The notes below the pieces were generated by a model. The model was not told the origin of the DNA and did not search any database. It worked only from the letters and a program-made list of their open reading frames with translations. Positions 21,052-30,194 of a stretch of DNA of 64,000 nucleotides are shown piece by piece. How positions within the stretch are numbered: the first letter of the stretch is position 1; every line of letters starts with the position of its first letter. Origin of the DNA: Aliiroseovarius sp. Z3 (GTDB taxonomy: Bacteria > Pseudomonadota > Alphaproteobacteria > Rhodobacterales > Rhodobacteraceae); contig NZ_JAFMZK010000008.1 in NCBI RefSeq assembly GCF_029105185.1, positions 124,001 to 188,000 of the forward strand, given 5' to 3'. The translations under genes were made by a program, and so were the position numbers.

Positions 21052-22368
21052 CTATCCTTCGCGGAATGCGCGTCTGAGCTGCTGCAAAAGCGGTTCCGTC
21101 AGGTAGGTCAGGACCGACCGTTCGCCCGTTTGCAGGAACGCTTCGACCGGCATTCCGGGGATCAATTCAACATCGCCAAGCCGCGCGATTTCCTCGGTCG
21201 GCAAGGTCAGATCAATACGGAAATAGCTCAGCCCGGTCTGCGGATCGTCAACGGATGTGGGCGAGATACCGGACACCGTGCCAAACAGTTCCGGCGTGGT
21301 GCGCTGGTTGAACGCAGGAAACAGAACCTTCGCAACCTGCCCCACAAACACCTGATCAATCGACTGCGGGTCCACCTGCAGCTTGAACTCAACCCCATCT
21401 GACAACGGCACGATCTGGGTGATCGTCGCTTCGGGCGCGACGACGCCCCCTTCGGTGGTGGCCTGCAATTCGTGCACGATCCCGTCAGTCGGGGCGTGAA
21501 TGTCGATCCGCTCCAGCTGCTTTTCGACCGTGACGATTTGCAGGATCAGCTCTTCGCGCTCGGCGGTGGTGGTGCGCAGCTCGGTCACCACCTGCTCCTT
21601 GAACTCGCGATCCGCTTGCAGGATCTCAAGCTCGGTATCGCGGATCGAGTTATAGATGCGCGCAAGCTCTGACTGATGTTCGGCAATCTGCCCCAGCAGA
21701 GAAGATTCCCGCCCCTGCAGCTCCAGCAATTCGCTTTCGCGCACCAGCCCCTGTTCGCTCAACCCCTGTTTGGTTTCGCGCTCCTGACTGACATAAGCCA
21801 ACTGGTCTTGCTTGGCGCTGATCAGGGCTTCAACCCCGGAAATCTGGTTGCGGAATTGCAGGATACGTTCGGCCAGTTGCTCCTTGCGGCCATTCAGCAC
21901 CTCGCGCCGGGCCACGAAAATCTCGCGCTGGCCTTTGAAATGCTGGGTCAGGTCGATATCGGGCAGATACGGGCTGTCGATGTTGAACACGGGGGCGTCA
22001 AGTTCCTGATATTCGGCATCCAACCGGGCCTCGCGGGTGACAACTTCGGACAGGCGGTTGCGATAAATCTCAAGGTTGATTTGAAGCAGGCTGGGGTCCA
22101 GACGCAGCAATACATCGCCCTTACTGACCACATCGCCATCTTTGACCAGAATTTCCTTAACCACACCGCCGTCCAGACTTTGCACCTGCTTGGGCAGACC
22201 GCGCACAACCACCTTGCCCGGCGCAATCACGGCCCCGGTGATGAGTGTCGTGGACATCCAGATAAAACCCGACACCAACAGCGCCAAGCTGGCCAGCGCA
22301 CCCAGATAGACAGGGGTCGCCAATCCGGTCTTGATCGGGCTTTGGGGGGCGGATGCAGGATTGGCCAT
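21052..22368 (-). CDS. HlyD-family membrane-fusion protein of type I secretion system
   Basis: 438 residues. One N-terminal transmembrane segment (~20-40), a biotinyl/lipoyl-like motif (VKEILVKDGDVVSKGDVLLRLD), a long coiled-coil hairpin (~105-290) and a C-terminal beta-barrel ending ERSVLTYLTEPL, typical of the PrtE/HlyD type I secretion adaptors. It starts 3 bp after the exporter ATPase gene ends, so the two are co-transcribed. It bridges the inner-membrane ABC exporter and the TolC-like channel. Confidence 0.93.
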   Translation of the reverse strand: MANPASAPQSPIKTGLATPVYLGALASLALLVSGFIWMSTTLITGAVIAPGKVVVRGLPKQVQSLDGGVVKEILVKDGDVVSKGDVLLRLDPSLLQINLEIYRNRLSEVVTREARLDAEYQELDAPVFNIDSPYLPDIDLTQHFKGQREIFVARREVLNGRKEQLAERILQFRNQISGVEALISAKQDQLAYVSQERETKQGLSEQGLVRESELLELQGRESSLLGQIAEHQSELARIYNSIRDTELEILQADREFKEQVVTELRTTTAEREELILQIVTVEKQLERIDIHAPTDGIVHELQATTEGGVVAPEATITQIVPLSDGVEFKLQVDPQSIDQVFVGQVAKVLFPAFNQRTTPELFGTVSGISPTSVDDPQTGLSYFRIDLTLPTEEIARLGDVELIPGMPVEAFLQTGERSVLTYLTEPLLQQLRRAFREG

Positions 22369-22371
22369 CGC

Positions 22372-24114
22372 TTATACCTCGAACACGGAACTGGGGGCGG
22401 CGGTGGGACGCTGAGGCGTTGCGTGTTGCAACACCTCTTCTTTCAAACCGAAGCGGCCAACCTTGCCTTCGTGCAGGATCAGGATCTTGTTCACGGCCTG
22501 AATGACACTGGGGCGGTGCGCCATCACCAGAACAGTGCAGCCCTTCTTGCGCATTCCGATCACCGCGCTGGCCAACGCCTCGTCCCCTTTTGCGTCGAGG
22601 TTCGAGTTCGGCTCGTCCAACACCAAAAGACGCGGGCTGCCATAAAGCGCGCGCGCCAAACCAAGGCGCTGTGTCTGCCCCCCCGACAGGGGTTGTTCTG
22701 TGGTGCCCACAAACGTGGTGTAGCCCTGTGGCATCTTCAGAATCATGTCGTGAACGCCCGCAATCTGCGCGGCTTCGATGACATCTTCGTCTCGCGCATC
22801 GGGATCAAACCGCGCGATGTTTTCGGCGATGGTGCCGGGCAGCATTTCCACCCGTTGTGGCAAATAGCCGATATGCCCGCCACGATCTTCGTTGTGCCAT
22901 TGGTTCAGCGTCGCGCCGTCCAGACGCACTTCGCCATGGTCGGGCTGCCACAGCCCCACAAGCAGACGCGCCAAACTGGATTTACCCGCCGCACTGCTGC
23001 CCACGACGCCCAACCCGTCCCCCGGCTCCAGCTCAAAACTGATGCGTTCCAGAATACGCGGCCGGTCGCTGACCAAAGAATTCTTGGGCGTCAATTTGGT
23101 GACGTTCTTCACAACCAGATGACCCTTGGGGTCGGGAAGATCGAAACCGCTTTGCGGATCGGGGATATAGTCCATCGCCTCTTTCAACCGACGATGCGCA
23201 TCGCCCGCACGCCCGATGGTGCGCCAGTGGCCAATCACCTGATCCACCGGAGCCAGCGCACGACCCGCAACAATCGAGGTCGCAATGATCATCCCGGCCG
23301 AAATTTCCTGTGACAGGGCCAGATAAGCCCCGACCGTCAACAAGGTCGATTGCAAAAGCAGACGAAAGGCTTTGGAAAATGCCGCCACCATCTCGGACCG
23401 ATCACCACCGGTTTGATAGTAACCCAGACTGTTCTGATGCAGCCCGCGCCAGCGGTCTGTCACCTTGTCCAGCATGCCAAGCGCCATCACGGCCTCGGCG
23501 TTGCGACGGGTGCGTTCAACGAAGGACCGTTCGATCCCTTCGCTGTTGCCCGCGCTTTTGATCGGCGCGCCCGTGGCAAAGCGGTTGATGACCGCCGCGA
23601 TGACAACAATGATCGCGCCGCCCACCGTCAGCCATCCCAGCCATGGGTGGATGAAGAACACCACAGCCAGAAAAATCGGGATCCACGGCAAATCGAACAG
23701 CCCCAGAATGGCCGGACTGGCCAGAAAAGCACGGACCACGGCCAGATCCTGCACCGGGTTGTAGTGTTCCTTGTTGTCGACAAAGCCCGATCGCAGCCAG
23801 AAACCGAAGGCATCAGAGCCGATTGCCTGATCCAGCCGATAGCTTGCCCGCGACAAAAGCCGGGCGCGCAGAAATTCGTAAATGCCCAAGAAGGCATAAA
23901 GGATGACAACGATCACAAACAGGCCCTGCAACGTCGCCACCGATCCGCTGGACAGCACGCGGTCATAGACCTGAAGCATGTAAAGCGGACCTGTCAGCAT
24001 CAGCAGATTGATCGCGGCACTGAACAGACCGACTGTCAGAAACGCCCGGCGCAGATGCGAAAGCTCTTTCTTATAGGGGTTTTTCTTGGGCTTCACCGAA
24101 AGCTGTTCTGACAA
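22372..24114 (-). CDS. Type I secretion ABC exporter (PrtD family permease/ATPase)
   Basis: 580 residues. Six-helix transmembrane domain (~25-310) fused to an ATPase: Walker A VVGSSAAGKSSLA, signature LSGGQTQRLGLARAL, Walker B LLVLDEPNSNLD. There is no N-terminal C39 or C39-like domain, which places it with PrtD/AprD exporters of proteases, lipases and S-layer proteins rather than with bacteriocin or HlyB types. No RTX protein (GGxGxDxxx repeats) lies in the window, so the cargo is elsewhere or is non-canonical. The closest secretable candidates are the protease-operon proteins 1-6 kb upstream, but that is speculation. Confidence 0.93.
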   Translation of the reverse strand: MSEQLSVKPKKNPYKKELSHLRRAFLTVGLFSAAINLLMLTGPLYMLQVYDRVLSSGSVATLQGLFVIVVILYAFLGIYEFLRARLLSRASYRLDQAIGSDAFGFWLRSGFVDNKEHYNPVQDLAVVRAFLASPAILGLFDLPWIPIFLAVVFFIHPWLGWLTVGGAIIVVIAAVINRFATGAPIKSAGNSEGIERSFVERTRRNAEAVMALGMLDKVTDRWRGLHQNSLGYYQTGGDRSEMVAAFSKAFRLLLQSTLLTVGAYLALSQEISAGMIIATSIVAGRALAPVDQVIGHWRTIGRAGDAHRRLKEAMDYIPDPQSGFDLPDPKGHLVVKNVTKLTPKNSLVSDRPRILERISFELEPGDGLGVVGSSAAGKSSLARLLVGLWQPDHGEVRLDGATLNQWHNEDRGGHIGYLPQRVEMLPGTIAENIARFDPDARDEDVIEAAQIAGVHDMILKMPQGYTTFVGTTEQPLSGGQTQRLGLARALYGSPRLLVLDEPNSNLDAKGDEALASAVIGMRKKGCTVLVMAHRPSVIQAVNKILILHEGKVGRFGLKEEVLQHATPQRPTAAPSSVFEV

Positions 24115-24281: not shown

Positions 24282-24479
24282 TCAGTTTTGAGGTTCGTCT
24301 GAGCCGTTCATGAAATGATCGCGGATCAGGCGCAACATTGCGATGCTGACAAGGGCCGAAAATGTACCGACCGAGCTATAGAACCAAAGCGCCATCCAAA
24401 TGGAATAGCCGTTCAAAAGCGCGGCAATTGCCGTGCCAAGCCCAACAAGCATTCCAAGACCAAGAACACCGATTACCAT
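24282..24479 (-). CDS. Small two-helix membrane protein, unknown
   Basis: 65 residues from ATG 24479, with GGAG seven bases upstream. Two hydrophobic helices (VIGVLGLGMLVGLGTAIAALL and WMALWFYSSVGTFSALVSIA) precede a short charged tail ending SDEPQN. A longer frame to 24731 shows no plausible protein before this Met. It is a monocistronic gene followed by a terminator. I do not recognise the family; the size and topology suit a small inner-membrane protein. Confidence 0.65.
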   Translation of the reverse strand: MVIGVLGLGMLVGLGTAIAALLNGYSIWMALWFYSSVGTFSALVSIAMLRLIRDHFMNGSDEPQN

Positions 24480-25127
24480 GTTCAACTCCAGTCCACGCGG
24501 TTGATCGCGATCATGTGCGACCTCGCAGAGATCATTCCTTCGATTCCACACTCCTCTATCTTGCGGAGGATTCGTGGCACAATTAAGGCGCGAGCGCCAT
24601 ATATTCAGGGTTGCAAAACATTGGCTGTCGATCGCGGGGCGGCGATCTATGACAGAGTGTTCCGGCCTGAGTGGTACCGCCAATATACATAAAATCAACC
24701 CATGCGCGAGTCCCTCCAAGCTAAATTTCATAAACAGGCGAGACAGCGCCGAACAGGCGAAACAAGCGCATTTGGGACCGCTTCCGAACCATCACGCCAA
24801 AATATTCGAAAGAATATGTCGCGATCTGCTTTGTAACTGTTTTTACGCGACTTTTCCCGACAGTTTTGATCGGGAGTATATCTACATCGTGATGACACCT
24901 GATCGGACGCCCTGTTCCCTCGCAACCACACGCAGACAGCTCGGGTGCAAAATTCAGACGCATGAATGCATCAGCGTTGAAACGAATCACTTTGCCGATT
25001 TTCGACCGTGTGAAGCGATTTTCTAAGCGACCGCCAGGTTCAGCACGCAAGAAACGTTGTCAAATTCTGCCCTTCCCGTGAAGAAATTCGGGCACCCCCG
25101 CGCTTCGATCCTTCATATCCGACAGCC
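24480..25127. other. Intergenic region, no gene supported
   Basis: About 650 bp upstream of the SARP-type gene. An open frame at 24574-25026 (plus) encodes a Cys/His/Arg-mixed sequence with no family resemblance and no ribosome-binding site, so I do not call it. The segment probably carries the promoter of the 65-residue gene and upstream control of the SARP operon. Confidence 0.5.
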
Positions 25128-25156
25128 TTCACGCTGCCTTCACGCAGCAATCACTA
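25128..25156 (+). promoter_or_regulatory. SARP-type heptamer direct-repeat array upstream of the SARP gene
   Basis: TTCACGC at 25128, TTCACGC at 25139 and the degenerate ATCACTA at 25150 are spaced at exactly 11 bp (7-bp repeat plus 4-bp gap). SARP activators are known to bind heptameric direct repeats with 11-bp period. TAAACA, a weak -10-like hexamer, starts 8 bases after the last repeat, also the canonical distance. A second such array lies upstream of the inhibitor-like gene, which suggests autoregulation by the SARP protein. Confidence 0.65.
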
Positions 25157-25298
25157 ATGGTTCGTAAACAACATGCAGGGATGTTCATCGGGGACCGCAC
25201 AATTGATTGCAGAGCATATTTTGCAAGAAATGCCAGTTTTGGGTAGTATTTCGAAACAATCTTTTGCGTTTAGCGCGAAGGTTTCCGAAGGATTGCCA

Positions 25299-27083
25299 AT
25301 GGACGCTGATCATTCCCGACAACATGACCTGGACATCTTCCTGTTCGGACCTCTTGCCGTGCAGGATGGCGCAGGCAACCAGTTCACTCCCAAAAACCAG
25401 AAGTCAAAGGCCGTTCTGGCCATGCTGGCGCTGGCCCCGCGCGGGTCGCGGTCACGGGTCTGGCTGCGCGACAAGCTGTGGAGCGACCGCGGCGAAGATC
25501 AGGCGTCCGCCAGTCTGCGGCAGGCGCTTCTGGACATACGAAAATGCTTCGGAGCGGACCTGAAAGACATTCTCAGCGCCGATAAATACTCGGTCTCGCT
25601 GGATCTGTCGCGCATCCGTGTCGATGCTATCGACCTGATGGACAAGGTGGAACAGGGCGTGGTCACCCCACCCGTCGGTCTTGACGCAATCTCAGAGCAC
25701 TTTCTGGAAGGCTTCGACATATGTGATCCCGAATTTGAAAGCTGGCTGACGTTAGAGCGCCAGATTTGGGAACAGCGGCTGATGGATCACGACGGTGAAC
25801 ACAGCGCGGACGCGACCCCCGAAATGTCCCCAGACGCCTTGGGCCTGTCGCGCAGCCCATCCGCCCCTGATCCCTTGATCAGCGCCCAAATGAATACCTC
25901 GCAACCGATCCAGCCGGCGCAAGCAGCCACTTGGGCCATCGGGGTGCAAAGCGGCATGGCCGGGGATGCCCATGCGGGGCTGTTGATCGACAAACTGACG
26001 CGAAACCTGCGCGAAATGGGACGTGTGCCCAGCGTGCGCACTTTTGAAAACCAACCTCTGTCGCAAATGCGCAGCGAATTTGGCCGGGTTGAAATCCCGC
26101 TGGTTCTGCGAGTGACAGAGTTGAACCAAGGCCCGTATGTGCGCCTGTCGGTCGAACTTCTGACCGGTAAGGATGGCGTGACCGTCTGGTCGTCCAGTCA
26201 GGCATTCGGCCCCGATGACTTTGCCCAGCCGGCCTGCCCTGCCCTGAACGGGCTTGTGTCTCACGCAGTGATCCAGATCGGGCGCCATCTGCAAATGAAT
26301 GCCACCAGCCCGCAAATGGCAGGTGCCGGGCAGCTGATCGAGTGCATCTATCAGATGTTCGGTCTTTCGGTGAACGAGCTGTCCAGCGCCGAAGATAAGC
26401 TGGCACATCTTCTGAAGATGCAGCCCAACGCGCAGACCTATGCGTGGATGGCTTTTGCCAAGTCCTTTCAGGTGGGCCAACGCTTCACGCCGGACGCCGC
26501 CGCGCAGATCTCGGAAGCGCAGTATTACGCGACCCGTGCGTTGGAAGAAGACGAATTCGACCCGCTGGTCCTGTCATTGGCCGCGCATATCCATTCCTAT
26601 CTGTTCAGCGAATTCGACATGGCGGCGTCATTGTTCGAACGCGCGCTGAAGATCGACCCCGAACAGGCAATCGGCTGGGATTTGTATGCGACGATGAGCG
26701 CCTATGCCGGCGACACCAAGAAATCGCTGGCAATGGCGTCATGGGCGCAGCATCTGGGGTCCAACACGCCGATCAGTTACTATTTCGATACCACGAAATG
26801 CATCGCGGCCGCGCTGGCCGGCAATCATGCCGCCGCCATTGAAGCCGGGGAAAAGGCACTGGTGCAGCGCCCGAAATTCAACTCGATCCTACGCTATCTG
26901 ATTTCCAGCCACGCCCATCTTGGCAATGTCCAGATGGTCGAAAGCCTGCGCCAGAAACTGGCCGAGATCGAGCCCGACTTTTCGACCGAAGTGCTGCGCG
27001 GATCGGGCTATCCGGGTTTGGCCACCGAAGGTGGCCGACAGTTTCTTCTGGGGCTGAGCAAGGCCGGATTCGACCAAGATTAG
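25299..27083 (+). CDS. SARP/BTAD transcriptional activator with TolB_N-like and TPR regions
   Basis: 594 residues from ATG 25299 (AAGGA seven bases upstream; further in-frame starts reach back to 25173). Residues ~8-105 form the OmpR-like winged helix of SARP proteins (KSKAVLAMLALAPRG, LWSDRGEDQASASLRQAL), followed by a bacterial transcriptional activator stretch (FLEGFDICDPEFESWL). The middle (~225-350) resembles the CadC/adenylate-cyclase-associated TolB_N-like fold (VRLSVELLTGKDGVTVWSS). The C-terminal ~220 residues are TPR repeats (ATRALEEDEFDPLVLSLAA, LFERALKIDPEQAIGWDLYA). It is the first gene of an operon with the PAP2 and subtilase genes and probably activates its own promoter and that of the inhibitor-like gene. 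Confidence 0.88.
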   Translation: MDADHSRQHDLDIFLFGPLAVQDGAGNQFTPKNQKSKAVLAMLALAPRGSRSRVWLRDKLWSDRGEDQASASLRQALLDIRKCFGADLKDILSADKYSVSLDLSRIRVDAIDLMDKVEQGVVTPPVGLDAISEHFLEGFDICDPEFESWLTLERQIWEQRLMDHDGEHSADATPEMSPDALGLSRSPSAPDPLISAQMNTSQPIQPAQAATWAIGVQSGMAGDAHAGLLIDKLTRNLREMGRVPSVRTFENQPLSQMRSEFGRVEIPLVLRVTELNQGPYVRLSVELLTGKDGVTVWSSSQAFGPDDFAQPACPALNGLVSHAVIQIGRHLQMNATSPQMAGAGQLIECIYQMFGLSVNELSSAEDKLAHLLKMQPNAQTYAWMAFAKSFQVGQRFTPDAAAQISEAQYYATRALEEDEFDPLVLSLAAHIHSYLFSEFDMAASLFERALKIDPEQAIGWDLYATMSAYAGDTKKSLAMASWAQHLGSNTPISYYFDTTKCIAAALAGNHAAAIEAGEKALVQRPKFNSILRYLISSHAHLGNVQMVESLRQKLAEIEPDFSTEVLRGSGYPGLATEGGRQFLLGLSKAGFDQD

Positions 27084-27105
27084 ACCAATTACAGGGAACA
27101 ACATT

Positions 27106-28059
27106 ATGAAAGACCGGGCAGACACGCCTCACGAATGTGGCTCTATCGCCGAGTTTTTAAGCCTTGGCCGGATCATCGTTGGGCCCAATGGCCTTCAGTT
27201 TGACGATGCCACAGACAAGATCACCGAAATCTCGGTTGAAAGCCGGACTGGGGCTCAGGGCGCGGGCGGCGTCAGCGCGGTCCGGATGGTGCTGAACAAA
27301 TCCGCCTTTAACAAATCGGCACTGAACAAGAATAAGAACAAAAACAAGAATAAAAACAAAAACAAGAATAAGCTCCAGGCCCCAAGCGCACAGGGTGCCA
27401 GCGGGGCATTGATGCCAACAGATGCCCTGTTGCGTCTTCATCGTCCCGGCGCTGCTGATCTGGATGCACGGTTGCCGAATGAATGGACCAACGTCACCCT
27501 GCCCCCGCCACCGGGGCCAGATCACAGCCGATTGGAGACCCAGCTTTTGCTGGCCATGCAGCGCAACATAGACGAACGCAAACTGCGCATCCCTGATATC
27601 ATCCAGGAAGCCACGCTGGACCTGACCGCCTTCACCCGCCCACTGGGGATTGACGGGCTGTCCGGGTTTGAAAACACCGAGGCGCTGTTTCTGGAGCTTC
27701 TGACCGTTACCGAATATGTGGGGCTTTACTATAAGGGCTTATTCGGGCGGCTTCGCCCAAATCAGGTTGAACCGCGCCTGCGCCCGGTTCTGCCCAATCC
27801 GGCACACGAAGCCTATCCCAGCAACCATTCCTTCCAATGTCACACGCTGGCCTTCGCCTTCAACACGATCCTGCCGGAACATCCCGCGACGCATGTCTTG
27901 TCCGAATCCGCCCTGAACGTGGCGCAGAACCGGGAATGGGCGGGACTACACTATCCCAGTGACACCGCCGCCGGGCGACTGCTGGCAAAACGCTTTGCAC
28001 CCCTGTTCGCCGAGGCGTTTGCCGACCGCTATCAGTCGGTGCAACAGGAATGGATCTGA
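27106..28059 (+). CDS. Soluble PAP2-family phosphatase/haloperoxidase-like protein with Asn-Lys repeat
   Basis: 317 residues. The full active-site signature of the PAP2/vanadium-haloperoxidase superfamily is present: K210-x6-R217-P218 (KGLFGRLRP), P238-S239-N240-H241, and R276-x5-H282-x3-D286. There is no signal peptide and no membrane helix, so it is a soluble member. The first ~100 residues are unlike the family and contain (Asn-Lys)x8 at 74-89, preceded by the related units LNKSA/FNKSA, apparently a linker or surface tag. It starts 22 bp after the SARP gene and is followed 12 bp later by the subtilase gene, so one transcript is likely. Substrate unknown; it could be a phosphate ester, or vanadate chemistry. 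Confidence 0.85.
   Translation: MKDRADTPHECGSIAEFLSLGRIIVGPNGLQFDDATDKITEISVESRTGAQGAGGVSAVRMVLNKSAFNKSALNKNKNKNKNKNKNKNKLQAPSAQGASGALMPTDALLRLHRPGAADLDARLPNEWTNVTLPPPPGPDHSRLETQLLLAMQRNIDERKLRIPDIIQEATLDLTAFTRPLGIDGLSGFENTEALFLELLTVTEYVGLYYKGLFGRLRPNQVEPRLRPVLPNPAHEAYPSNHSFQCHTLAFAFNTILPEHPATHVLSESALNVAQNREWAGLHYPSDTAAGRLLAKRFAPLFAEAFADRYQSVQQEWI
27325..27372 (+). repeat. In-frame AAYAAR hexamer repeat encoding (Asn-Lys)x8
   Basis: Eight consecutive AAC/AAT-AAG/AAA hexamers (48 bp) inside the PAP2-like gene. Third-position variation is scattered, so the amino acid pattern is kept while the DNA has diverged, suggesting selection on protein sequence. Low-complexity repeats of this kind can still vary in length by slippage, in steps of two residues without a frameshift. 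Confidence 0.9.
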
Positions 28060-28071
28060 GGGGCAATGGAT

Positions 28072-29628
28072 ATGAACACCGTAAACTCGAAATGTGTCCA
28101 GGCTGAGACCGTGGACGAGACCAGCTATTATTACCTGTGGCATCTTGTATCGCTGGGGGTTCTGACCCCAGACAAATCCCAGACCGGGTTTTCAGACACG
28201 TTGTGGGATATGCTGGCAGGTAAGGCCGAAGCAACGCCATCGACCGTTGTTCTGATCGACGTCGGGTGCAGCTTTGCCCATCCCAACCTGAAAGACCGGG
28301 TTGATGCGGCCCGCTCGCTCGATTTCACCGGCACGCCTTTCGGGGCACGGCTGGCGACCGGATCAGATGGCGATCAGAAAAACTTTGCCGGATTGTCGGT
28401 CGATGACCTGCATCTGGATGGGCTGGAGGCCGATGAGCTGGCGATGTTCGACGAGGTGGTCCAATACCTTGCTGAAAGCACCGGCGAATTGCGTGCCAAT
28501 GGCGATACAGAGGCCAAGTTTGCCTCGCACGGGACCGCGGTCAGCGGGCTGATCGTTGGTGGGCCGGAAAACTGCTGCAAGACCGGCGACGAACCCTCGA
28601 CGGGCGTGATCCCTTATTTCGGGGTCGATCCGTTTTCGACGCTGATTTCGCTGCGCACCGGGTTTGACAATGACCCTCTGCAATTCATCGCAGCCCTTCT
28701 CTATGCCTGGCATCAGAAACCTGACGTGATCGTCATGCCGCGCGGGCTTCCGGACCCCGATGCCTCGATCGTGACGCCAAAGGACGACTTCAAGGCCGAG
28801 TTGCAAAGCTGGGCCAACCACGAGGCCGCCGACCTTCTGCACCGGATCGAGGTGTTGACAGACAAGGCTTCGCCCCATGATCCCAGCGCACCGCAAGTGT
28901 CGGAAACTGGTCGTCACCTATGGCGGGTGGTGCGCGCATTGTTCATCGCGATCAGCAAACATGTTCCCATCGTCTGTGCCGCCGGGAACGAAGGTGAAAG
29001 CCAGCTGTTGTTCCCCGCCAATCTGGCCAACCGCGAAAACGGAATCATCGCCGTTGGGGCGGTATCAGGACAGGGCTATCGCTCGGGCTACTCCAATTAC
29101 GGCGACGGGCTGACCTTGGTTGCACCCTCCGATGATATGGAGGTCTTCAATCGCCACCAATTGCGCGAAACACCGAAACGGATGGACAAGGTGGGCTATC
29201 TGAAACCCACAAGCGCCATGGCGGTGCCCTATAGCCGCAAGGGGTTGCTGAGCACCGATATTCCCGGAAGTTTCGGATATGACGGGGCGCGCGATGACGG
29301 CCACGATCTGCCGCCTGAAGTGGCGCAAAGCGGGTTTTACACTCAGTTCGGCGGCACCTCGGGTGCCTCGGCACTGGTTGGCGGCGTTGTCGCGCTGGTG
29401 CGACGCGCCGAACGCCTGTCTGGCAGCGGCAAATGCCCACGCGACGGCACCGACCTGAAGGCATTGCTGATGGCCACAGCGCGCCGTGACATGCCGATGA
29501 TCGGCGCGACATTGCCCCTGAAATCCGACTGTATGAACAGCGCCAACGAAGATGCGGACGCGTTCGGGACGTTCTTTGGTGCCGGGTTGATCGACGCCAA
29601 AGCCGCCGTGACCGCCGCACTGGACTAA
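28072..29628 (+). CDS. Subtilase (S8) serine protease without signal peptide or propeptide
   Basis: 518 residues from ATG 28072 (GAGGGG eight bases upstream; ATG 28066, two codons earlier, has only a 2-base gap). The catalytic triad is complete: Asp63 (VVLIDVGCSF), His153 (SHGTAVSG), Ser430 (GGTSGASA), with the oxyanion Asn306 (CAAGNEGES). Insertions between Asp and His and between Asn and Ser make it longer than subtilisin. Only ~55 residues precede the catalytic Asp strand; no Sec signal, lipobox or I9 propeptide is visible. The protein downstream (29937) resembles the missing propeptide. An intrinsic terminator follows. It probably acts in the cytoplasm or is exported unconventionally; its target is unknown. 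Confidence 0.92.
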   Translation: MNTVNSKCVQAETVDETSYYYLWHLVSLGVLTPDKSQTGFSDTLWDMLAGKAEATPSTVVLIDVGCSFAHPNLKDRVDAARSLDFTGTPFGARLATGSDGDQKNFAGLSVDDLHLDGLEADELAMFDEVVQYLAESTGELRANGDTEAKFASHGTAVSGLIVGGPENCCKTGDEPSTGVIPYFGVDPFSTLISLRTGFDNDPLQFIAALLYAWHQKPDVIVMPRGLPDPDASIVTPKDDFKAELQSWANHEAADLLHRIEVLTDKASPHDPSAPQVSETGRHLWRVVRALFIAISKHVPIVCAAGNEGESQLLFPANLANRENGIIAVGAVSGQGYRSGYSNYGDGLTLVAPSDDMEVFNRHQLRETPKRMDKVGYLKPTSAMAVPYSRKGLLSTDIPGSFGYDGARDDGHDLPPEVAQSGFYTQFGGTSGASALVGGVVALVRRAERLSGSGKCPRDGTDLKALLMATARRDMPMIGATLPLKSDCMNSANEDADAFGTFFGAGLIDAKAAVTAALD

Positions 29629-29643
29629 GCCGGTTTGATTTTC

Positions 29644-29677
29644 AAAAACCGCCGGGGCGAACCTCCGGCGGTTTTTT
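29644..29677 (+). terminator. Intrinsic terminator ending SARP-PAP2-subtilase operon
   Basis: AAACCGCCGG and CCGGCGGTTT arms around a short loop are followed by T6, 15 bases past the subtilase stop. Confidence 0.88.
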
Positions 29678-29728
29678 CATGCGCACATCCCATGAAATTC
29701 ACGCAAATCTGCCCGAGAGTCGGCATTT

Positions 29729-29757
29729 ATCACGCAACATTCACGCGGCCCTTTCGC
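29729..29757 (+). promoter_or_regulatory. SARP-type heptamer array upstream of inhibitor-like gene
   Basis: ATCACGC at 29729, TTCACGC at 29740 and the weaker CTTTCGC at 29751 share the 11-bp period of the array at 25128. A further isolated TTCACGC sits at 29698. The array lies between the operon terminator and the small gene, so it should give that gene its own SARP-dependent promoter. The -10 element is not obvious. Confidence 0.6.
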
Positions 29758-29936
29758 CGCGTTTATGCCCCTGCGTCATATTGAATATGCGTTCTGAGTA
29801 GCCAGTTTGGCGAAAGCCATTTTATCACCTGTACCTTTCCAAACCCCAAACTGGTTCCTCAGTTCGCACCAGAGACACAAACCCAAGACCCGATGACAAC
29901 AACCCGACAACCGACCTGATGAACCGAGGTGCGACA

Positions 29937-30194
29937 ATGGAAAAACTGGACCCGAAACTGAAAGACCGGATGGAAAGCCTGACCAGAAATTCCCATCCCG
30001 TGCTGATCACCTGTCACGATGATTGCGACCTGCTGATGGATCACCTGAACAAGAACGGTGTCATGGTCGACGACAACATGGCCGAGATCCAGCTGCTGGT
30101 CGCTGATCTCACCTCGCGGCAGATCGAGGATCTGCTTAACCACGAAACAGTCGCCCAGATCGCGCTGGACGATGATGGTAGCGTGTTCCAGTAA
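29937..30194 (+). CDS. Stand-alone subtilisin-propeptide-like (inhibitor I9 fold) small protein
   Basis: 85 residues from ATG 29937 (GAGGTG upstream; ATG 29919 would add six). The pattern is strand HPVLITC (20-26), helix DDCDLLMDHLNKNGV (28-42), strand EIQLLVADLT (50-59), helix SRQIEDLLNHE (60-70) and a final strand VAQIALDDDGSVFQ. This is the beta-alpha-beta-beta-alpha-beta order and spacing of I9 propeptides, whose last part typically reads LT..Q...L....V..I..D. No signal peptide. The adjacent subtilase lacks such a propeptide, so this protein may be its folding chaperone and inhibitor supplied in trans. The assignment is by pattern only. Confidence 0.7.
   Translation: MEKLDPKLKDRMESLTRNSHPVLITCHDDCDLLMDHLNKNGVMVDDNMAEIQLLVADLTSRQIEDLLNHETVAQIALDDDGSVFQ

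What the first reader, a model, noticed from the sequence alone, without database searches (positions are those of the whole stretch)
25128..30194. Candidate undescribed system: SARP regulator, PAP2-like enzyme, subtilase and separate propeptide-like protein
Seen: one operon (SARP/TPR regulator, soluble PAP2-fold enzyme with an Asn-Lys repeat, subtilase with no signal or propeptide), a terminator, then an 85-residue gene resembling a subtilisin propeptide. Both promoters share 11-bp-spaced heptamers. Known: SARP proteins activate from such repeats, and I9 propeptides fold and inhibit subtilases. Inferred: a self-amplifying switch makes a protease and a phosphatase together with a trans-acting inhibitor. 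It could act in antagonism, defence, stress or differentiation. I know of no named system with this gene set.
Basis: partly seen in the sequence, partly recalled or inferred. Interest (0 to 1): 0.88.

Follow-up and report, generated by a model that had tools for sequence, protein, structure and literature searches.

The report
Repeat-armed phosphatase with partner protease
Many alphaproteobacteria carry an unnamed gene set in which a switch protein sits beside a phosphatase-like enzyme bearing a perfect run of short repeated peptides, different between lineages, and beside a protease, which suggests that the protease cuts the run to make small peptides or to switch the enzyme.

Summary
In this PAP2 family the enzyme carries a perfect tandem array of 2-5-residue units near its N-terminus: 134 of 142 unique hits, 48 units (NK, NR, SR, GGA, NVG, ENW, NSQ, GGF and others). 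Synonymous codons in the arrays are as mixed as local codon usage predicts, so selection holds the peptide and slippage does not explain it. A SARP/TPR regulator lies within 300 bp in 127 of 134, and a protease gene within 5 kb in 129 of 134. That slot holds unrelated folds: subtilases, papain-like and glutamic A4 peptidases. Catalytic residues are kept. SARP-type 11-bp boxes recur before the operon. The small protein has a subtilisin-propeptide fold but was found only at 7 places near the window, so it is an accessory. Best reading: the array is the partner of the adjacent protease, most likely a multicopy short-peptide precursor under a self-activating regulator. Cleavage and product are not shown. 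Eight literature searches listed no description of this system.

The parts
25128..25145 (+). SARP-type box TTCACGC-N4-TTCACGC, 11-bp period
   Evidence: 0 mismatches to TTSACGC twice; spacing-specific conservation in 51 of 85 loci
25173..27083 (+). Regulator (REG): SARP-like winged-helix domain, middle domain, TPR region; likelier start at 25299
   Evidence: Profile of 12 homologues hits EmbR, AfsR and TPR structures; Pfam hits weak
27106..28059 (+). PAP2-fold enzyme, class A acid phosphatase-like, no signal-like start to the eye, with N-terminal array
   Evidence: PF01569 1.9e-9; K210 R217 P218 H241 R276 H282 D286 in 134 of 134; fold match 7f17 E 4.2e-8
27325..27372 (+). Tandem peptide array (NK)8 inside the PAP2 gene
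   Evidence: 4 different DNA units among 8 copies; predicted disordered; exact (NK)4 DNA found nowhere else in the genome
28066..29628 (+). Core subtilase (S8), no I9 propeptide match
   Evidence: PF00082 4e-21; D65 H155 N308 S432 in 87 of 87 aligned homologues, two loci counted twice; only S8 match in the genome
29644..29676 (+). Intrinsic-terminator-like hairpin with T run
   Evidence: -22.6 kcal/mol, z -4.41
29729..29746 (+). Second SARP-type box, before the small gene
   Evidence: 1 of 14 mismatches; boxes with 1-2 mismatches in L062, L063, L066 but not L067, L068
29937..30194 (+). Small propeptide-fold protein, 85 aa (longer frame starts 29919)
   Evidence: AF2 pLDDT 85.5, beta-alpha-beta-beta-alpha-beta; best Foldseek matches are subtilisin propeptides

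Best explanation
A three-gene module. Shown by sequence comparison: a SARP/TPR regulator, a PAP2-fold enzyme with an N-terminal tandem peptide array, and a protease encoded beside it. Inferred: the protease cuts the array and releases many copies of one very short peptide (or short multiples of it), as Kex2 cuts fungal repeat precursors. Inferred: the peptide is the private product of that lineage, a signal or a small bioactive peptide, and the regulator drives its own operon through TTSACGC boxes, perhaps with its TPR part as the sensor. In Rhizobium and relatives a peptide beta-hydroxylase-like gene and a ThiF-like gene follow and may finish the peptide. The PAP2 active site is fully kept, so the enzyme probably also works; its substrate is unknown. 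In the window's lineage the small propeptide-like protein, which has a box of its own, probably inhibits or helps fold the propeptide-less subtilase.
For: Arrays in 134 of 142 unique family hits, 48 units, against 1 of 1356 other ORFs, itself antisense to an array. Loci were brought in by the catalytic domain or its motifs. Synonymous codons mixed: 5.20 distinct DNA units per array, 5.22 expected. Protease gene within 5 kb in 129 of 134, 123 of these within 100 bp, of three unrelated families. Unit type goes with protease class: all 79 core-S8 arrays are NK, NR, SR or GR; 3 of 3 C1 arrays are NGGL/NGGM; 5 of 5 G1/A4 arrays are AGN, TGN/NTG or TSN. Relatives 51-69% identical outside the array carry shifted units (AGV/TGV, GGF/NSF, AGN/TGN). 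In 6 of 6 genomes where two modules were opened the units differ (one of the twelve is imperfect, L170, and one short, L248). HExxH beta-hydroxylase-like gene in 28 and ThiF-like gene in 24 loci. SARP boxes.
Against: No cleavage, peptide or expression was tested. The window's regulator, PAP2 and subtilase show no signal-like start to the eye, so secretion is unexplained; L057 has a Tat-like start. The PAP2 site is invariant in 134 of 134, more than a passive carrier needs. Units of two residues are very short for a receptor ligand, and units such as GGA offer no side chain to modify. The 39 divergent-S8 arrays use 33 units with no residue in common, which does not look like one protease specificity. 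The unit-class link rests on few independent switches, because both follow the PAP2 tree. Some units stay the same over long distances (GGA at 66% and TGN at 44% identity), so the unit is not always fast-moving. L248, L253 and L274 have no recognised protease nearby; the contig of L253 ends 3.5 kb downstream.
Confidence: 0.4

Rival explanations
1. Protease-switched effector: the PAP2 enzyme is the output, and the adjacent protease cuts the array or linker to free or activate it under stress, as in bacterial modules where a neighbouring protease activates an effector (bacterial gasdermins; recalled).
For: PAP2 catalytic residues invariant in 134 of 134; one fusion of PAP2 and S8 (L057); protease classes interchangeable.
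Against: A plain disordered linker would do; perfect copies of one unit in 48 dialects are not explained. No PADLOC match for the four window proteins and no match of P0003 in the phage records.
Confidence: 0.25
2. The array is not cut: it is a multivalent binding strip or flexible tether that gathers PAP2, protease and perhaps the TPR regulator, with the unit co-adapted to its partner.
For: Array predicted disordered in the window protein; small and polar residues dominate; core-S8 dialects all combine N, S or G with a basic residue, and L131 has T with K.
Against: A tether needs no perfect unit identity, and a protease would have to leave an exposed disordered run uncut.
Confidence: 0.22
3. 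One reading: protease and phosphatase act as a pair with a trans-acting propeptide-like inhibitor, in the manner of a toxin with its antidote; the array is incidental.
For: Propeptide fold of the small protein; own SARP-type box; P0003 is the only S8 match in the genome.
Against: Small protein found at only 7 places near the window and in 2 of 149 genomes; arrays in 134 of 142.
Confidence: 0.08

Closest known systems
Fungal Kex2-processed repeat proteins (KEPs: ustiloxin precursor, yeast alpha-factor); abstract of PMC7329392 seen
   Same: Highly repeated short sequences, very diverse between lineages, cut by Kex2 (subtilisin-type; recalled), modifying genes near some
   Different: KEPs have signal peptides, and longer units set apart by Kex2 sites (recalled); here the units are 2-5 residues, directly joined, on an intact enzyme, and the protease is encoded next door and belongs to several classes
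RRNPPA peptide signalling with tandemly duplicated pheromone propeptides; abstract of PMC11343458 seen
   Same: Propeptides with several pheromone copies processed by extracellular proteases; TPR receptors encoded beside them (recalled)
   Different: Those are Bacillota systems with secreted propeptides; here the DNA-binding part is SARP-like, the would-be precursor is an enzyme and no secretion signal is seen
RiPP clusters with aKG-HExxH enzymes; abstract of PMC12636437 seen
   Same: TIGR04267-type gene (28 loci) and ThiF-like gene (24 loci) in Rhizobium and relatives; HExxH enzymes can hydroxylate several consecutive residues
   Different: These genes were found only in those loci among the 96 clustered; no separate leader-core precursor was looked for with a dedicated tool
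Class A non-specific acid phosphatases (PhoN/PhoC; 7f17)
   Same: Fold and catalytic residues
   Different: Array, no signal-like start in the window protein, fixed regulator and protease neighbours
Subtilisin propeptides and free I9-type inhibitors (POIA1)
   Same: Fold of the small protein
   Different: No detectable sequence match; separate gene with a SARP-type box; found only near the window's lineage

Membership tests
SARP regulators | OmpR-type winged-helix DNA-binding domain | tested here: met
   Profile hits EmbR 3.9e-6 and AfsR 4.4e-6; Pfam Trans_reg_C only E 0.077, under cut-off
SARP regulators | Bacterial transcriptional activation domain (BTAD) after it | tested here: not met
   No BTAD match in the window protein up to E 10; TPR region instead
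SARP regulators | Heptamer direct repeats with 11-bp period in target promoters | tested here: met
   51 of 85 loci, spacing-specific; binding not shown
Class A acid phosphatase / PAP2 | K-x6-RP, PSxH, R-x5-H-x3-D | tested here: met
   K, R, P, H, R, H, D in 134 of 134; Pro and Ser of PSxH in 129 and 131 of 134
Class A acid phosphatase / PAP2 | Export by signal peptide | tested here: inconclusive
   N-termini were only read by eye; no signal-peptide program was available
Inhibitor I9 | Sequence match to PF05922 | tested here: not met
Inhibitor I9 | Propeptide fold | tested here: met
   (best E 3.7e-3, none at 0.001 or better; TMq 0.75)
Inhibitor I9 | Inhibits or folds its subtilase | not testable with these tools
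   needs protein
RiPP cluster | Small leader-core precursor gene | not tested
   No dedicated precursor finder was used; the array itself sits in a 317-aa enzyme
RiPP cluster | Peptide-modifying enzymes beside it | tested here: inconclusive
   HExxH-like gene in 28 and ThiF-like gene in 24 of 96 clustered loci, Rhizobium and relatives
RRNPPA signalling | Peptide bound by the TPR regulator | not testable with these tools
   needs binding assay
Kex2-processed repeat proteins | Repeats cut by a subtilisin-type protease | not testable with these tools
   adjacency only

The most novel reading that the evidence does not exclude
A bacterial multicopy-peptide system: an active phosphatase-fold enzyme carries a private, lineage-specific tandem array of di- to pentapeptides that an exchangeable partner protease turns into short peptides, which are sensed by, or made under, a self-activating SARP/TPR regulator; different modules in one genome use different dialects.
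Probability: 0.35. Interest if true: 0.95.

Novelty: categorically new. Interest (0 to 1): 0.87.

Why it matters
A widespread enzyme family in which nearly all members carry a perfect short-peptide array, in dozens of dialects and beside proteases of unrelated classes, has no described counterpart that I found. If the arrays are precursors, this is a large unmapped source of bacterial peptide signals or products, with the unit readable directly from the gene. If they are switches, it is a general design for protease control. Either way the array gives a sharp prediction to test: each protease should handle its own unit best.

Tried and rejected
Export by the type I secretion genes divergent from the operon (21052-24114): an HlyD/ABC pair sits upstream in the window and its closest relatives (L062, L063, L066, L267; L064 shows the ABC gene only) and an HlyD/ABC pair also lies downstream in L259 and L264, but not beside most modules, so I do not count it as part of the system; export by it in these few lineages is not excluded. 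Phase variation by slippage: repeat units are whole codons, so the frame is kept, and codons are mixed. Phage or known defence origin: no match of P0003 in phage records, none of the four window proteins in PADLOC. Side-chain modification of the array as a general rule: units such as GGA and GGV have nothing to modify. Vanadium haloperoxidase: sequence and fold are nearer to class A acid phosphatases; haloperoxidase chemistry is not excluded. Relating the small protein to the N-domain of the second subtilase by profile: 29 columns aligned, probability 20.7%, E 0.0011, inconclusive. Class-wide search with the subtilase profile: 21 of 289 matched, but apart from the window only short stretches at E 2.5e-9 or weaker. 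Literature: (8 of 10 searches) listed no paper on this gene set; the library holds open-licence papers only. Of three papers fetched I saw abstracts and section lists.

Limits and misses: ORFs came from my own simple caller, which takes long starts. The divergent-S8, C1 and G1 profiles were built from these same loci, so part of the 39, 3 and 5 counts are training rows; independent support is Pfam S8 at E 0.011 or better for 8 of 9 divergent neighbours scanned, 3 of 9 over the cut-off, Pfam A4 over cut-off for 5 of 5 and S8 over cut-off for 3 of 3 others (L060, L179, L270), and Pfam C1 at 0.0016, just under cut-off, for the one C1 protein scanned. The 80 loci are the best of 330 and lean towards the window's clade; 55 of 134 arrays are NK. 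The 8 of 142 hits without a counted array are L170 (imperfect NTRSGx repeats), L073 (degenerate), L109 (three KN copies only; also the one complete-looking locus with no regulator found), L131 (on checking it has a (TK)5 run that my 300-residue limit missed), L056 (contig end), L054 (truncated, with a stop in the matched stretch) and the outgroup-like L171 and L269. Of the 51 genomes hit, 38 were opened and 13 were not; I opened all places at E 1e-40 or better and few of the weaker ones.
Full report
What was claimed and what is there. All of this holds. The window lies in a genome close to Aliiroseovarius (L066, Aliiroseovarius sp. S1339, 91% identical PAP2).

Co-occurrence. In 149 genomes of the family, one per genus, the subtilase query matched 9, the PAP2 query 51, the small protein 2. 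Eight of the nine subtilase genomes have PAP2 and subtilase side by side and a regulator before them. A scan of 84,980 species with two catalytic motifs of PAP2 gave 330 relatives, of which the best 80 were kept. Of these 80, 77 show regulator, PAP2 and subtilase in that order on one strand; L069 lacks the subtilase (contig end) and L109 and L136 the regulator (L136 at a contig end). A strict rule on gaps passes 70 of 80, because my ORF caller takes overlong starts. The titles are Rhodobacterales, Rhizobiales and Pelagibius. Loci from the class and phylum searches widen this to other alphaproteobacterial families and to two genomes outside the class (G545, G748).

The array. Reading the N-termini showed the main finding. 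Where the window has (NK)8, relatives have (NR)n, (SR)n, (GR)n, and more distant ones (NVG)16, (ENW)10, (GGAH)11, (NSQ)9, (GGF)12, (AGV)16, (TGN)12 and so on. Over 142 unique family hits 134 have such an array of at least 3 copies and 8 residues, with 48 units after collapsing rotations; 125 have at least 4 copies and 12 residues, against 1 of 1356 other ORFs of 150 aa or more, and that one lies antisense on an array. A 135th, L131 with (TK)5, was found on checking. Two hits (L171, L269) have neither regulator nor array, start like exported phosphatases and serve as outgroup controls. L109, the one complete-looking locus in which no regulator was found, has only a decayed array. The loci were found through the catalytic domain (alignment ranges; motifs), so the array did not select them.

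Kept at the protein level. Each array uses mixed codons: 5.20 distinct DNA units per array against 5.22 expected from the codon usage of the same locus; neighbouring units identical in DNA 157 of 1026 against 179 expected. Some arrays have no two DNA units alike (GGAH 11 of 11, DAR 7 of 7). So the synonymous sites keep no trace of tandem duplication while the residues stay perfect. The unit shifts between relatives: AGV and TGV in proteins 69% identical outside the array, GGF and NSF at 63%, NSQ, GNQ and EAV at 58-60%; but GGA is shared at 66% and TGN at 44%, so it can also stay put. In six of six genomes in which two modules were opened (G097, G126, G241, G399, G526, G834) the two units differ; the second array of G126 is imperfect and that of G526 has three copies.

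The protease. A protease gene lies within 5 kb in 129 of 134 and within 100 bp in 123 of those 129: core subtilase 79, divergent subtilase 39, other S8 3, papain-like C1 3, glutamic peptidase G1/A4 5 (Pfam PF01828 in 5 of 5). Of the five without, L057 is a PAP2-S8 fusion followed by a trypsin-like gene, L069 ends at a contig end, and L248, L253 and L274 have none recognised (the contig of L253 ends 3.5 kb downstream). Replacement of one protease fold by another beside a constant partner suggests that proteolysis itself is needed. Unit chemistry follows the class in part: the 79 core-S8 arrays are all N, S or G plus Lys or Arg; the C1 arrays contain Gly-Gly; the G1 arrays are AGN, TGN/NTG or TSN. 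The 39 divergent-S8 arrays, however, use 33 units with nothing in common. The link also rests on few independent switches on the tree, so it is suggestive only.

Enzyme and regulator. The PAP2 residues K210, R217, P218, H241, R276, H282 and D286 are the same in 134 of 134, and the subtilase D65, H155, N308 and S432 in 87 of 87 aligned rows. The PAP2 model has a confident catalytic domain next to class A acid phosphatases (7f17, E 4.2e-8) and a disordered array. The regulator profile matches EmbR, AfsR and TPR superhelices. In L049 the DNA-binding part is replaced by what reads as a class III cyclase domain (my reading, not searched). The heptamer pair TTSACGC at 11 bp recurs before the regulator in 51 of 85 loci and hardly at other spacings or in coding DNA; it is almost confined to NK-type loci, many of them close relatives.

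The small protein. It was found at 7 places, all near the window. Its fold is that of subtilisin propeptides, its gene has its own box in WIN, L062, L063 and L066, and P0003 is the only S8 protein found in the genome. In L067 and L068 a second subtilase lies between the core subtilase and the small gene; its N-terminus has a sub-threshold I9 match in L047, the same locus as L067 (E 0.014). Which subtilase the small protein serves is open there. I read it as a lineage-specific inhibitor or folding helper of the core subtilase.

Other partners. In 28 loci of Rhizobium and relatives a TIGR04267 HExxH-type peptide beta-hydroxylase-like protein accompanies the module, directly after the subtilase in strain 3841, and in 24 a ThiF-like protein. 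A haem-peroxidase-like gene is a neighbour in L051 (PF03098 4.4e-13), with sequence relatives in L052, L053, L059, L170, L175 and L273; those of L052, L059 and L175 had no peroxidase match in Pfam. Eighty plasmid records match the PAP2 protein, 64 of them Rhizobium.

How it may work. The simplest account of a perfect array, private to the lineage, next to a nearly constant but exchangeable protease, is that the array is that protease's substrate. Either the freed peptides are the product (best explanation) or the cut switches the enzyme (first rival). The fungal Kex2-processed repeat proteins (abstract) and tandem pheromone propeptides of Bacillota (abstract) show that such precursors exist, and HExxH enzymes can hydroxylate consecutive residues (abstract). 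What speaks against a pure precursor is the untouched active site of PAP2 and the lack of visible export signals.

Prevalence. Of the 51 genomes hit I opened 38: 35 show an array, L056 is cut by a contig end, L054 is truncated, and L171 is not a member. So at least 35 of 149 genera of the family carry a module.

Verdict. The finding is real and larger than reported. The gene set is a recurrent module; the four-part inhibitor switch is at most a local variant; the array-bearing PAP2 with a partner protease is the novelty.

Noticed in passing
L049:9761-11671 (same as L140): The regulator carries what reads as a class III nucleotide cyclase domain in place of the SARP DNA-binding domain, so the output of the module may be cAMP-type in this Ruegeria lineage.
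   Followed up: no
L057:3743-8265: A single 926-aa protein joins a Tat-like start, a TH-rich array, PAP2 and S8 domains, followed by a trypsin-like protein with a signal-like start.
   Followed up: partly
L169:2993-6027 (Rhizobium johnstonii 3841 plasmid pRL12): HExxH peptide beta-hydroxylase-like and ThiF genes directly after the subtilase; a DUF982 gene and a 73-aa gene follow and could be looked at as separate precursors.
   Followed up: partly
L051:11450-13288: Animal-type haem peroxidase-like gene divergent from the regulator; sequence relatives beside modules in L052, L053, L059, L170, L175 and L273.
   Followed up: partly
L122:3302-4939, L067:10829-12358: A second subtilase recurs beside the module, upstream of the regulator in many NR-type loci and downstream in L067 and L068.
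   Followed up: partly
window 21052-24114 (-): Type I secretion ABC and HlyD genes divergent from the operon in the window and its nearest relatives; an HlyD/ABC pair also lies downstream of the module in L259 and L264.
   Followed up: partly
L170:4877-5920: Family member with an imperfect array NTRSGA-NTRSGL-NTRSHL-NTRMGF, a possible decaying or nascent array.
   Followed up: no
L109:7749-8693: Aminobacter locus with PAP2 and subtilase but no regulator found, and only a decayed array: the array may decay when the regulator is lost.
   Followed up: no
window 24282-25050: Two short reading frames upstream on the minus strand with no Pfam match for the one tested (24282-24731).
   Followed up: no
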